Source: Candidatus Tectomicrobia bacterium
GTDB taxonomy: Bacteria > UBA8248
Reading direction: 5' to 3'
Assembly: GCA_016192135.1 (NCBI GenBank)
Contig: JACPUR010000030.1
Span: 1 to 64,000 of the forward strand
DNA: 64,000 bases
Shown here: positions 58,240-63,111 of the stretch, one piece after another
Position numbering within the stretch: the stretch's first letter is position 1
Layout: every line of letters begins with the position of its first letter
Position numbers and translations under genes: made by a program
Notes under the pieces: model-generated
Told to the model about the DNA's origin: nothing
Seen by the model: the letters and a program-made list of their open reading frames with translations, nothing else
Database searches by the model: none

Positions 58240-58481
58240 TGCTCGCCTACCGCCTGGGCCGCGCGCTTCAATTCCTGGCGATGGTGGACTGCGGCGTCGC
58301 CCTGCTCATCGGGCTCTCCGCGCCCCAGGCCTACGGGATCCAGCTCCTCGTGCTGGGGTCGGCGGCGCTCCTCTTCGGGGCGGGCCGGCTGCTCCAGCGG
58401 CGGGGCGAGGCTTCTCTGCCAGAGGCCTCCCCGCGGGAGGCCGGCCTGCAAGAAGCCCCGCGCGGGCCGGCGGGGCCGTGA
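58239..58481 (+). CDS. Small two-helix membrane protein
   Basis: 80 residues starting in the aminotransferase stop (TGATG). Two hydrophobic helices (LQFLAMVDCGVALLIGLSA; GIQLLVLGSAALLFGAGRLL) and an Ala/Glu-Pro tail. No family recognised. Its position in an overlapping row with the aminotransferase and the next gene (4-base overlap) argues that it is translated. Confidence 0.6.
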   Translation: MLAYRLGRALQFLAMVDCGVALLIGLSAPQAYGIQLLVLGSAALLFGAGRLLQRRGEASLPEASPREAGLQEAPRGPAGP

Positions 58482-59959
58482 GCCCCCCCGCCCCGCGGTC
58501 CGCCCTCGCCGCGTGGTGGGACAACCGCTCCGGGGCCTACCTCCGGGAGAACCTGGGCCCGGTCGAGAGCGAGGTCCGCGCCCAGCTCGCCCCCCTCCTG
58601 TTCCCCCCGGCCGCCGAGCCCACCCTGCCCGAGGTGTGCCTGCCCCTGGCCTTCGCCCACCTGAGGCTCCTCGCGGGCGAGGAGCTGAACGTGGTCCTCC
58701 GGCGCCTGGAGGGGCTGGCGCGGCTGTTCGGGGCGCCCGGCGCGCGCGTGCCCGTCGGGGCCGTCTATCTCCTGCTGACCGCCCTGACCTCCACGCCCGG
58801 GCGGCTCTCCTCCCTGGCGCGGGCGCAGACCGCCTTCTTCAGCCTCCTGCTCCGGCGGCTGGCCGGCCTCCTGGATCAGGGGGCGGGCGAGGACGCCATC
58901 CGCCGCGAGCTCACCGAGGCCTGGGGCATCCAGGCCGACCAGGCGGCGGGGCTGGCGCTGAACGGCGCGCGCGCCTTGTGGCGGCGCCTCCAGGACCCCG
59001 GCCTGGGGCTCCGGCCGCTGTCTTTCGACTTGAACGAGTGGCTCGCGGCGCGCGATCTGGCCGGGGCGGCGGCCGGGGCGCGGCGGCTCTTCCCCGGCGC
59101 CGGGGAGCATCCCCACCTCGCTCCCCTCGTCGAGCGCCTGGCGGCGGCCGAGGCCATCCGGGGGGCGCTGGAGCGGGGGGGCGAGCCCGCCCGCATCGCC
59201 GAGTGGGCCGGGACCCACGCCCTCCTCCTCGACAGCCTGCGCGGCGCGGCCGAGAACCTCGTCCCCTGGGAGGCCGAGGGCCTCCGGCCCGCCGTGCCGC
59301 TGCTGAGCGCGCTGCTGGGCTGGTCCCGGCGCCTGGGCCTCCTCGACCAGGGCGAGGCCCCCACCGCCCAGCCGGGCCGGGAGCGCCTGCCGGACTGGCT
59401 GCGCGAGTTCCTCGCCTCGGGCGCCCCCCCGGCGGCCATCCCAAGCGGCCCGCCGCTTGGGGAATCTGGGAGAGGGGGCGTGCTCGCCGCCGGGCGCTTC
59501 CTCGTGGGGAGCGGCACCTACCTCGCCGCGGGGGTGGACGCCAAGGCGCCCTCCGGGGCCGCCTCGGCCTCGCTCTCGCTCGAGCCGCCGGCGGCGGGGG
59601 GAGAGGAGGCGGCGATCGCCCTCCGCTTCGGGACCGGCGAGGCGCGGCGCTTCCCCTTCCGCCTCTCGGACGGCAAGGACCTCCTCGCGGCCCTCCACCT
59701 CGGGGATCAGCCCGACGTGCGCTTCGACCTCATCGTGCGCGGGGAGGACGGCCTCTGGCGCTTCGGGGCCTCCTTCTACCTCGCCCCCCCGCCCGCCGAG
59801 CGCGAGGCCTGGACGCGCGGCCTGCTCGAATACCTCCATCTCCGCCACGGGGGGGAGGAGGACCGCATCAAGGTGGCGATCTTGCGGGGGATGCCCGGGG
59901 GGAGGGAGGGGGGCGATGTGCCGTCCGCCGGAGGGAGCGGCGGGCCGGTGTCACCCTGA
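58478..59959 (+). CDS. Large hypothetical protein; end set by a B-type repeat
   Basis: 493 residues, GTG start overlapping the previous stop. Ala/Leu/Arg-rich helical first part (to about 300), a low-complexity linker, then a beta-rich last domain (LSLEPPAAGGEEAAIALRFG, DVRFDLIVRGEDGLWRFG, EDRIKVAIL). The final 20 residues (GGDVPSAGGSGGPVSP) run into a B-related repeat, whose TGA ends the gene. No signal peptide or known domain recognised. The last domain might be a FliK-like or substrate-contact barrel, but this is a guess. Confidence 0.62.
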   Translation: MSPPAPRSALAAWWDNRSGAYLRENLGPVESEVRAQLAPLLFPPAAEPTLPEVCLPLAFAHLRLLAGEELNVVLRRLEGLARLFGAPGARVPVGAVYLLLTALTSTPGRLSSLARAQTAFFSLLLRRLAGLLDQGAGEDAIRRELTEAWGIQADQAAGLALNGARALWRRLQDPGLGLRPLSFDLNEWLAARDLAGAAAGARRLFPGAGEHPHLAPLVERLAAAEAIRGALERGGEPARIAEWAGTHALLLDSLRGAAENLVPWEAEGLRPAVPLLSALLGWSRRLGLLDQGEAPTAQPGRERLPDWLREFLASGAPPAAIPSGPPLGESGRGGVLAAGRFLVGSGTYLAAGVDAKAPSGAASASLSLEPPAAGGEEAAIALRFGTGEARRFPFRLSDGKDLLAALHLGDQPDVRFDLIVRGEDGLWRFGASFYLAPPPAEREAWTRGLLEYLHLRHGGEEDRIKVAILRGMPGGREGGDVPSAGGSGGPVSP

Positions 59960-60192: not shown

Positions 60193-60435
60193 TCAGGCCA
60201 GGAGGCGCGCCACCTCCGCCCGGTTGGCCTGAAAACCCCTGATCACCTGGCCGTCAATGACCAGCGTGGCCGTCACCCGGCTTTGGTATTTCTCCGTGAG
60301 TTCCTTGAATGCCGCGGGGTCCGCCTGAATATTCTTGCTTTCGAAGGGTACGCTTTTGCGCCGGAGGAACTCCTCGGCCGCCGTGCAGTCCCCTCAACCC
60401 GGCTGGTGGAAAAGGATCACGTTCTTCGCGCCCAT
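60193..60435 (-). CDS. Glutaredoxin-like protein with in-frame TGA (UxxC), probable selenoprotein
   Basis: 80 residues if the TGA at 60394-60396 is Sec. MGAKNVILFHQPG is followed by the TGA (position 14), then GDCTAAEEFLRRKSVPFESK...LVIDGQVIRGF...VARLLA to a second TGA stop at 60193. This is the glutaredoxin/NrdH order (strand, CxxC, helix), with TGA replacing the first Cys of GCGDC. The usual cis-Pro before the third strand is Ala (VTATLVI). It sits 53 bases after the Sec-containing reductase and on the same strand, so it may be its electron donor or a repair partner (inference). Confidence 0.82.
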
Positions 60436-60488: not shown

Positions 60489-61718
60489 TCAGATTCCTTT
60501 GTCTTTCAGCCGGTGCCTTTGGGCGTAGGGGACGACCATCCGTTCCCCCACCATCTGGGTCGCCTTGTCGGGGATTCGCGCCAGCACCGCGGGAAGGGCC
60601 AGGAACAGCCATCCCGCCTGGGTCTGGCCCCAGAACCATTCGCTCACTTCCTGGGGGGTGGGGCTCCCCGGCTGGCTGACGACGGCTTCCGTATAGAAGG
60701 CTCGCAGGTCCTCGCAGGCGAGCTTGAGCAGGGTGGCGGGGGACATGCCGGGCCGGGGGTTCTCCTCGGGCTGCCCGGCGAGGTATGAGACGATGTGCCG
60801 GGCCGCCTGTTCCGGTTTCAGGCCACTCACCCCCACCGTGGAGCGGCCGCGCTTCTCTCTTCCCAGGTCGTACCACTTCCCCAGCATGCGCATTTCGCCG
60901 AGCAGGGCGGTCAGGTGGCCGGTGGGGTCGTCCAGGGGCTGGGGCCTGGGGCGCAGGTCCACGGGGCAGGCCCACCCGCTCGCATCACTGCCGGAGCCCG
61001 GGGCGTCTTCGTCGTAACTCTCCAGGACGGGCCCGGAACCGGCCTCCAGGAGGATAAGCGCCCGCCGGAGCACCCTTCGTTGAAAACCCGGATCGTTCGG
61101 CACCCCAAAGGGGCGCCCGAAGTCAAAGGAAACCCATAGCGCCCGGGGAGGGCAGATCTTCTCCGTGTGTGGCCGAACCAGGCTGATCTGCGTGGTGGGG
61201 ATACCGCTGCCCTCGAGGTAATGTGCCAGCCCGCCCACGGCGCGCGTGCAGTTGGGTCAGACGGGACAGAGGATGACGCCATTCACGCCGTCCTTCTTCA
61301 GGAGGTCCGCCAGCTCGCGCGCGGAGGCCTCCATCCGCTCGGGCGGGGTCGCCCCCATGAACGAATAATGGAAGTCGGCCGCGGAGCCCACCTCGCCGCG
61401 GCCCTCGAGCTCCATCAGGCGGTCGATGGGAAACACCACGTTCACGTCCTGCTGGTACCCGGACCGATCGAAGTTGCTCGATATATGGCTCATTTGAAGT
61501 TGCCCGGAAGGCGAAGTCCGGGGGATGATGCGGTAGTCGCCCGAACCGGGAGCGAAGGTGGGCTCGCCGGGAAGGTGCAGGCCCGCCGTGGAAACGATGG
61601 CGATTCGCCTTTGGGAAAGGGGAGGGCCCGTCATCCAGGGCCTGCCCGCGAAAACGGGCATGTCCAGGCTCTGCAGATGGGCGATTTCCGCCTCGCTCAG
61701 GTCACCGAACCGGGCCAT
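60489..61718 (-). CDS. GrdB/PrdB-family reductase subunit with in-frame TGA, probable selenoprotein
   Basis: 409 residues if the TGA at 61257-61259 is Sec at position 154, with Cys at 157 (VILCPV, TGA, PNCTRAVGG). Upstream is the glycine/sarcosine/betaine/D-proline reductase selenoprotein B pattern (TFAPGSGDYRIIPRTSPSG, then SHISSNFDRSGYQQDVNVVFP). Downstream HYLEGSGIPTTQISLVRPHT and the LGKWYDLG region continue without a break. Grd/Prd enzymes reductively cleave C-N bonds using a Sec nucleophile and a pyruvoyl or Cys partner. No GrdA/C/D/E or PrdA is near, so the reaction is open. AAGGAG is five bases before ATG 61718. Confidence 0.87.
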
Positions 61719-61809: not shown

Positions 61810-62238
61810 TCAGACCTCCTCCTCCCGGGCGTAGGCGACCGCCAGGGCGAGGCCGAACACCAGGTGCGCGATGAGGGAGGTCAGCAGCCCCCGGATCGCG
61901 GCCGGCCGGTTCCAGAAGAAGCCCAGAGGCCCCACCAGGCCGCCCACGACCTGGGCCGCCACCGTGGTGACGACCCCCACGCAAACTCCCTTCATCCATG
62001 GGTTTTCGCCCGGCACCCACTCCCGCCACCGGGCATACATCAGGCCGAGGATCGCCCCGTTGGCGTAGTGCGCCGCCAGCCCCATCCAATACGTGGTCTT
62101 CCCGAGCGAGAACGCCATCAATCTGGCCGGATCGGAGGGGGGCAGGTGAATGGCGACGAGCCAGTAGGCACATACAGACATGATGTAGGTGGCGATCAGG
62201 CCCGAAACGGTGGCGCGCCAATAGTTAGGCCGTTCCAT
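61810..62238 (-). CDS. Four-helix membrane protein, YagU/DUF1440-like
   Basis: 142 residues. RATVSGLIATYIMSVCAYWLV, GLAAHYANGAILGLMYARWREW, VCVGVVTTVAAQVVGGLVGPLGFFW and TSLIAHLVFGLALAVAYA are four helices, with repeated Gly-x3-Gly. It resembles YagU-type small membrane proteins of unknown role. Start at 62238 (GGGAGGAG upstream). A 3' fragment is duplicated at 60065. Expressed from the same strand as the TGA-containing genes with a 91-base gap. Confidence 0.7.
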   Translation of the reverse strand: MERPNYWRATVSGLIATYIMSVCAYWLVAIHLPPSDPARLMAFSLGKTTYWMGLAAHYANGAILGLMYARWREWVPGENPWMKGVCVGVVTTVAAQVVGGLVGPLGFFWNRPAAIRGLLTSLIAHLVFGLALAVAYAREEEV

Positions 62239-62318
62239 GGACGACTCCTCCCTTTTTCCGCGAATTTCCACAAAACGGACGGATGATCCAACGTCCAAGA
62301 ACAGCGCGGAGCCGACTT

Positions 62319-62918
62319 TTATTTCGCCTGAATCGCCTGAAGCGCGCACGAATTTTTCGGCGAATTCTTCGGAAGTGGTTGGTTCAATGGGGCGAGGCAT
62401 TGCTGAAGCATCCGCCTCGCCCGCCACAGGCGGCTCATCACCGTCCCCAGAGGGCATCCCTCGATTTTTGCGATCTCCTTGTAGGAGAAGCCCTCCACCT
62501 CGGAGAGGATCAGGATCTGGCGGAATTTTCCCGGGAGCCGATTCAGGGCCTGATCGAGCTGCTCGAAGGTCAGCTTGCGGATGACCTCGGCCTCGGGGCC
62601 TTTCCCCGCCGAATGGAAGCTCTCCAGCCCGAATTCTTGCAAGGCTCCCTCGGCATCCACCAGGTCCTCGTGAGGCGGAAGCTTGGACCGGTGGCGGTAC
62701 TGGTTGATGTAGGTGTTGCGCAGAATCCGGAAGAGCCAGGCCCGGCAGTTGCTCCCCGGCTCGAACTGATGGAAGAAGCGCAGCGCCTTGAGGTAGACCT
62801 CCTGGACCAAGTCATCGGCTTCAACGGGATCGCGGGCAAGCCGCAGGGCGCCCCGGTAGACGGAATCCAGATGCCGGAGGGCTTCTTCCTCGAAACAGCG
62901 CCGGTCCGAGATCAGCAT
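62319..62918 (-). CDS. ECF-type RNA polymerase sigma factor
   Basis: 199 residues. Region 2 at about 15-85 (LDSVYRGALRLARDPVEADDLVQEVYLKALRFFHQFEPG, WLFRILRNTYINQYRH) and region 4 at 120-180 (LDQALNRLPGKFRQILILSEVEGFSYKEIAKIEGCPLGTVMSRLWRARRML). The group is SigE/RpoE-like ECF. The C-terminus has extra Cys/Pro/Asn residues. No anti-sigma factor with a zinc motif is adjacent. It is the only regulator in the 60-64 kb block, so it is the prime candidate to control it. ATG 62918 has GAGG six bases before. Confidence 0.92.
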   Translation of the reverse strand: MLISDRRCFEEEALRHLDSVYRGALRLARDPVEADDLVQEVYLKALRFFHQFEPGSNCRAWLFRILRNTYINQYRHRSKLPPHEDLVDAEGALQEFGLESFHSAGKGPEAEVIRKLTFEQLDQALNRLPGKFRQILILSEVEGFSYKEIAKIEGCPLGTVMSRLWRARRMLQQCLAPLNQPLPKNSPKNSCALQAIQAK

Positions 62919-63111
62919 GGCTCCCCTCGATGCGGATAGGTGCTGCATGCCCATGTTTTGTGCCCATGCTTCCGGGTCATTCATCCGGGAAGCACGGCCG
63001 CCCCTTCGTCCGGCTTAGGGGCGGCCGCGGCTTGACCGGCCGCTTTTCCGTTGACGCTATAGAAGGCGCCGCCGCCTCCGGTTCCTCCCCACGAGAGGCT
63101 CAGCCGGCATG

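What the first reader, a model, noticed from the sequence alone, without database searches (positions are those of the whole stretch)
60489..61718. GrdB/PrdB-like gene read through a TGA: probable selenoprotein
The frame stops at 61257 and resumes in the same frame with conserved sequence. CPV-TGA-PNC sits where the family has Sec (UxxC). The ribosome site, length and both halves fit one 409-residue protein. The other Grd or Prd subunits are missing nearby, so its reaction may be new.
Basis: partly seen in the sequence, partly recalled or inferred. Interest (0 to 1): 0.85.

Follow-up and report, generated by a model that had tools for sequence, protein, structure and literature searches.

The report
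Stand-alone GrdB/PrdB-like selenoprotein, long form
This bacterial gene really does read one UGA "stop" as selenocysteine and makes a 409-residue enzyme of the glycine/proline-reductase selenoprotein kind, but of a long, stand-alone form that is widespread, always selenium-containing so far, and of unknown reaction.

Summary
The gene lies on the minus strand (61718→60489) and is a 409-aa frame interrupted once by TGA (61259–61257) in CPV-U-PNC. All 70 relatives found in named genome contigs, from several phyla, carry TGA at that codon and continue past it. So do the Nitrospinota-type relatives, both shorter paralogues in this genome and an annotated clostridial PrdB. Distant short-form Alphaproteobacterial homologues have Cys there. 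The genome has selA, selB and a tRNA-Sec (UCA). selD is missing from this assembly but present, itself with TGA, in 14 of 18 relatives. A bacterial SECIS-type hairpin follows the UGA and pairs far better than synonymous recoding allows (88% vs 55%, 0 of 500). It is not GrdB or PrdB proper: it scores below NCBI's cut-offs, carries a roughly 145-aa helical C-terminal domain without Pfam or PDB match, and the genome lacks the PrdA/GrdE partner. The long forms make one monophyletic, so far all-Sec group. A second predicted selenoprotein, a UGDC glutaredoxin, starts 53 bases downstream. Best reading: a thiol-dependent selenoenzyme, likely a small-molecule reductase; substrate unknown. PF07355 "PrdB" selenoproteins are already known from marine metagenomes, so this is a new variant of a known kind.

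The parts
60489..61718 (-). Gene of the long GRDB-family selenoprotein, 409 aa plus TGA stop
   Evidence: Translation with TGA=U; homologues across the whole length in 70 loci; alignment A1 of 54 rows
61257..61259 (-). In-frame TGA read as selenocysteine, residue 154, motif CPV-U-PNC
   Evidence: TGA at this codon in all relatives examined; aligned with Sec of clostridial PrdB and Cys of Alphaproteobacterial homologues
61224..61256 (-). SECIS-type hairpin: upper stem 61245-61239 / 61235-61229, apical loop GUG 61238-61236, lower stem 61250-61248 / 61226-61224
   Evidence: Fold; pairing above synonymous null, 0 of 500, with compensatory changes; folding energy below synonymous recodings
61014..61619 (-). 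GRDB/PrdB core, about residues 34-235, with Sec154 and Cys157
   Evidence: PF07355 over 34-151, TIGR04483 over 33-225; AlphaFold model mean pLDDT 90
60492..60935 (-). C-terminal all-helical domain, residues 262-409, no Pfam family and no PDB match
60193..60435 (-). Downstream gene, likely same operon (53-base gap): 80-aa glutaredoxin-like protein with TGA at 60396-60394 (QPG-U-GDC), a second predicted selenoprotein
   Evidence: frame, Pfam PF00462 E 3e-11, TGA at the same position in the distant relatives read

Best explanation
The gene encodes a selenoprotein: UGA codon 154 is decoded as selenocysteine by SelB and tRNA-Sec, directed by the hairpin just downstream. The protein is a stand-alone long member of the GRDB/PrdB superfamily, with a PrdB-like catalytic core plus an uncharacterised helical C-terminal domain. 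Most likely Sec154, at the start of a helix, and Cys157 form the redox centre. The selenolate attacks a small substrate or a disulfide-like bond, Cys157 resolves the selenenyl-sulfide, and a glutaredoxin or thioredoxin (here probably the neighbouring Sec-glutaredoxin) returns the electrons. Without a PrdA/GrdE pyruvoyl subunit it cannot activate an amine as a Schiff base in the PrdA way, so the substrate probably has its own leaving group or is a dithiol/disulfide. Supported by sequence evidence: decoding, hairpin, family core, absence of the partner. Inferred: redox cycle, electron donor, substrate class.
For: Frame and TGA. TGA conserved in every relative examined. selA, selB, tRNA-Sec in the genome. 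45 of 50 carrier genomes have selA over the curated cut-off, against 1 of 14 control genomes. SECIS hairpin: 88% paired vs 55% in synonymous recodings, 0 of 500, compensatory changes; mean folding z about -1.2 against synonymous recodings over 94 sequences. Alignment with the TGA of an annotated Peptoclostridium PrdB and Cys of Haematobacter and Roseomonas homologues. Core family hits. No PF09338 in the genome while the same search finds it in a clostridial control and in three relatives. Sec-glutaredoxin 53 bases downstream. In Alphaproteobacteria the gene sits beside a SelD fusion and near SelB.
Against: selD was not found in this assembly (the best match reads as a ThiL); an assembly gap is the likely cause but is not shown. 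No protein evidence. The glutaredoxin neighbour is not seen beside any other long-form gene held, so its role as donor rests on this one genome. Neighbours differ between lineages, so no substrate is indicated. PrdC or other electron carriers were not searched for.
Confidence: 0.8

Rival explanations
1. It is a general thiol or peroxide oxidoreductase that protects or repairs proteins and metabolites, and not a catabolic reductase; the Sec-glutaredoxin is its redox partner.
For: UxxC motif and adjacent Sec-glutaredoxin. In Alphaproteobacteria it lies beside Sec machinery. AhpD/CMD-type genes lie near some copies.
Against: The characterised superfamily members (GrdB, PrdB) are substrate reductases. 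Several lineages place the gene next to catabolic genes: TauD dioxygenase in Burkholderiales, class-III aminotransferase and FAA hydrolase in relatives, HAD hydrolase in Desulfobacterales.
Confidence: 0.35
2. It is a true D-proline, glycine, sarcosine or betaine reductase subunit working with partners encoded elsewhere.
For: PF07355 and TIGR04483 similarity. Sec column identical with PrdB.
Against: Scores 97 bits against a PrdB cut-off of 300 and 40-55 against GrdB-type cut-offs of 65-800. No PF09338 partner in the genome, positive control found. No GrdA match (controls silent). No PF09338-type gene in the flanks of the other long-form loci. Extra C-terminal domain absent from PrdB.
Confidence: 0.06
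3. The TGA is a real stop, a sequencing error or the mark of a pseudogene, giving at most a 153-residue protein.
For: Only the general fact that TGA is a stop in the standard bacterial code.
Against: TGA at the same codon in every relative examined, in independent assemblies; purifying selection downstream; Sec machinery; conserved hairpin.
Confidence: 0.02

Closest known systems
PrdB, Sec subunit of D-proline reductase (TIGR04483)
   Same: Core of about 200 residues, UxxC at the identical alignment column; 32% identical to the annotated Peptoclostridium acidaminophilum PrdB
   Different: 97 bits against a cut-off of 300; no PrdA partner; extra helical C-terminal domain; residues around the Sec differ (PVUPNC vs AGUGTC)
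GrdB / GrdF / GrdH, protein B of glycine, sarcosine and betaine reductase (PF07355, TIGR01917, NF040794, NF040795)
   Same: Matches the last third of PF07355 up to the Sec (profile positions 223-345)
   Different: Lacks the first ~220 positions of the GrdB profile, has its own C-terminal domain, far below curated cut-offs; no GrdA or GrdE found in the genome
Marine 'proline reductase PrdB' selenoprotein family of the Sargasso Sea and GOS surveys (PMC1088965, PMC2398784)
   Same: PF07355-like, UxxC, Sec form abundant (235 Sec, 110 Cys in GOS)
   Different: The surveys name the family by similarity only; whether they contained this long form could not be checked here
'glycine/sarcosine/betaine reductase selenoprotein B family protein' as annotated in Alphaproteobacteria (WP_035710215.1, WP_207415257.1)
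   Same: Same core and column; the name NCBI uses for such distant members
   Different: About 300 residues, Cys in place of Sec, no long C-terminal helical domain

Membership tests
Bacterial selenoprotein | In-frame TGA with conserved sequence on both sides, TGA/Cys at the same column in homologues | tested here: met
Bacterial selenoprotein | SECIS hairpin just downstream with G among the first loop bases | tested here: met
Bacterial selenoprotein | selA, selB, selC in the same genome | tested here: met
Bacterial selenoprotein | selD in the same genome | tested here: inconclusive
   Not in the draft assembly, present with its own TGA in 14 of 18 genomes of the phylum including both congeners
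Bacterial selenoprotein | Sec in the purified protein | not testable with these tools
   needs 75Se labelling or mass spectrometry
Pfam PF07355 GRDB superfamily | Score above the gathering threshold | tested here: met
   35.7 bits against 22; 54 of 54 long-form relatives match
D-proline reductase PrdB (TIGR04483) | Score above the equivalog cut-off of 300 bits | tested here: not met
   96.9 bits
D-proline reductase PrdB (TIGR04483) | PrdA-type (PF09338) pyruvoyl subunit present | tested here: not met
   no match in G000; the clostridial control record and three relatives give matches
Glycine/sarcosine/betaine reductase protein B (TIGR01917, NF040794, NF040795, TIGR01918) | Score above curated cut-offs | tested here: not met
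   40-55 bits against 65-800
Glycine reductase complex | GrdA (PF04723) in the genome | tested here: inconclusive
   no match, but no control genome rang either

The most novel reading that the evidence does not exclude
The long forms are a separate, obligately Sec-dependent enzyme family with an unrecorded helical domain that carries out a new selenium-dependent reduction without a pyruvoyl partner subunit, in bacteria of several phyla including lineages outside the classical Stickland fermenters.
Probability: 0.4. Interest if true: 0.65.

Novelty: new variant of a known kind. Interest (0 to 1): 0.42.

Why it matters
Gene finders cut such genes at the TGA, so a widespread enzyme is easily missed or split. 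The family's characterised members are Stickland enzymes of anaerobes, while the long form occurs in Burkholderiales, Alphaproteobacteria, SAR202-type Chloroflexota and others without the partner subunits nearby. It therefore poses a testable question: what does a PrdB-type selenocysteine do on its own? That no Cys variant was seen among the long forms suggests a reaction for which sulfur is not good enough.

Tried and rejected
Stop codon, pseudogene or sequencing error: rejected by conservation of the TGA in every relative examined. True PrdB or GrdB: cut-offs not met and PF09338 partner absent. The selD candidate on C13: its frame reads as a ThiL-type protein in a ThiE-ThiL setting, not SelD (inference from sequence). 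Rfam scan of the window at gathering scores: no match, which says little about a bacterial SECIS of this kind. Searching PDB by sequence and by fold for the whole protein and for the C-terminal domain: no match at E<=0.001. Pfam on the C-terminal domain: only scattered single-member chance hits. A conserved operon partner across lineages: none; the commonest neighbour cluster occurs in 8 of 69 loci. Sec-glutaredoxin as a conserved neighbour: found only in this genome. One apparent case without UxxC (second copy in L079) turned out to have TGA with one extra residue, U-P-A-L-C.

Full report
Observation. The gene is on the minus strand, 61718 to 60489. With TGA read as a residue it gives 409 amino acids with one internal TGA, residue 154, in CPV-U-PNC. 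AAGGAG precedes the ATG.

Conservation of the TGA. All 18 held genomes of the same phylum have matches, nearly all through exactly one TGA. Four of them (this one, G015, G016, G017) carry the long form. A scan of named genome contigs gave 70 loci of the long form. In each of them the motif carries TGA; a few contigs are truncated or frameshifted outside the motif. The peptide patterns used for that scan did not include the motif, so Cys variants would not have been excluded; none appeared. GenBank titles and the tree place these loci in Pseudomonadota, Thermodesulfobacteriota, Deltaproteobacteria filed under Myxococcota, and Chloroflexota. Two relatives of the window's phylum appear in GenBank as 'ODZ_NOB7a' and 'Nitrospinota bacterium', so the window probably comes from a Nitrospinota-type lineage (inference).

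Selection. Between the window and its nearest relatives the part behind the TGA is as conserved as the part before it (core 80% behind and 61% before, 55% in the C-terminal domain), with dN far below dS on both sides.

Machinery. selA, selB next to it and tRNA-Sec with UCA anticodon are present. selD is not in this draft: the best match reads as a ThiL-type protein. Fourteen of 18 genomes of the phylum, both congeners included, have a selD with its own TGA, so an assembly gap is likely but not shown. Of 50 other genomes carrying the long form, 45 have selA over the curated cut-off; of 14 control genomes 1 does.

SECIS. Bases 14-20 and 24-30 counted from the UGA form a stem with apical loop GUG; the two paralogues of this genome form the same hairpin. 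Over the long clade 88% of upper-stem cells pair, against 55% (s.d. 1.7) in 500 synonymous recodings, none of which reached the observed value; sliding the partner strand destroys the pairing, and compensatory changes occur. Folding energy is lower than that of synonymous recodings by about 1.2 s.d. on average in 94 sequences. The first loop base is G in all 90 distinct sequences, but this position is also the first base of a conserved Val codon.

What it belongs to. Pfam PF07355 and the PrdB, GrdB, GrdF and GrdH models match, all but the Pfam one below their curated cut-offs. An annotated PrdB of Peptoclostridium acidaminophilum has its TGA in the same alignment column, and the Haematobacter and Roseomonas homologues have Cys there. 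In a tree of the shared core the long forms are one side of a single branch (support 100/99), with all short paralogues on the other. The long form adds about 145 residues of helices, modelled with pLDDT 95, with no Pfam family and no PDB match by sequence or fold. The full model (pLDDT 90) puts residue 154 between a strand (147-151) and a helix (155-170).

Partners. PF09338, the PrdA/GrdE family, is absent from this genome while the same search finds it in the clostridial control record and in G015-G017, on other contigs than their long-form genes. In G015 a GrdE-like gene is followed by its own GrdB-like gene with U-G-T-G, so the two systems are separate. No PF09338-type protein lies in the flanks of the other long-form loci (with the clostridial PrdA frame as positive control). 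GrdA gave no match, without a positive control.

Neighbours. In the window an 80-aa glutaredoxin-like gene with QPG-U-GDC starts 53 bases downstream; its distant relatives in the phylum have TGA at the same position. Elsewhere the neighbours vary by lineage: a SelD fusion and SelB in Alphaproteobacteria with an amidohydrolase-like gene upstream (name of the last by sequence only), TauD dioxygenase and TctC receptors in Burkholderiales, HAD hydrolase in some Desulfobacterales and Betaproteobacteria, class-III aminotransferase, FAA hydrolase and CMD-type genes in G015 and G017. These point to small-molecule catabolism or redox work but to no single substrate.

Literature. PF07355-type 'PrdB' selenoproteins are among the commonest in marine metagenomes (PMC1088965, PMC2398784) and D-proline reductase is listed in a 2026 inventory (PMC13188914). 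In a fluoroacetate-degrading Cloacibacillus, GrdB-type proteins are proposed to cleave a C-F bond (PMC10838667), which suggests that the superfamily's chemistry may be wider than amino acids. I found no description of the long form; most subscription papers are not held, so this absence is weak evidence.

Judgement. That it is a selenoprotein is as sure as sequence can make it (about 0.97). That it is a stand-alone thiol-dependent reductase is the likeliest function (about 0.5 for a small-molecule reductase, 0.35 for a general thiol oxidoreductase). The stated confidence of 0.8 is for the whole explanation with its inferred steps marked as such. The kind is known; the architecture, the all-Sec distribution and the lack of partners make it a new variant.

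Noticed in passing
window 60193-60435 (-): Glutaredoxin-like gene interrupted by TGA (QPG-U-GDC), a second predicted selenoprotein directly downstream; a second Sec-type glutaredoxin relative lies on C19:35177-35392.
   Followed up: partly
G000:C21:4260-4904 and C23:98871-99506: Two shorter PrdB-like paralogues, also with in-frame TGA (FPV-U-PLC, APA-U-GLC) and the same SECIS hairpin; a DoxX-like frame precedes the one on C23 and a C-GCAxxG-C-C-like frame lies near the one on C21 (names by sequence only).
   Followed up: partly
G000 (whole assembly): selD is not found although selA, selB and tRNA-Sec are; 14 of 18 phylum genomes have selD, itself with TGA.
   Followed up: partly
L148:4495-7097 (G015:C10): A GrdE-like (PF09338) gene followed by a GrdB-like gene with TGA and U-G-T-G instead of UxxC, separate from the long form.
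   Followed up: partly
L079 and L122: Tandem copies of the long form; the second copy in L079 has U-P-A-L-C, one residue more between Sec and Cys.
   Followed up: no
L144, L145: Cys-containing short homologues on plasmids of Haematobacter and Roseomonas, the first next to a class-III aminotransferase, the second next to SelO; a class-III aminotransferase also precedes the long form in G015 and G017.
   Followed up: partly
window 61813-62457 (-) and 62322-62984 (-): DUF6789 protein and an ECF-type sigma factor upstream of the selenoprotein gene.
   Followed up: no
window 58478-59956 (+): 493-aa open frame without any Pfam match.
   Followed up: no
loci L080, L095, L096, L098, L099, L111, L112 and L097: Environmental MAGs titled Bordetella parapertussis or Chitinophaga pinensis carry Burkholderiales-like copies; the titles look like misnaming.
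   Followed up: no
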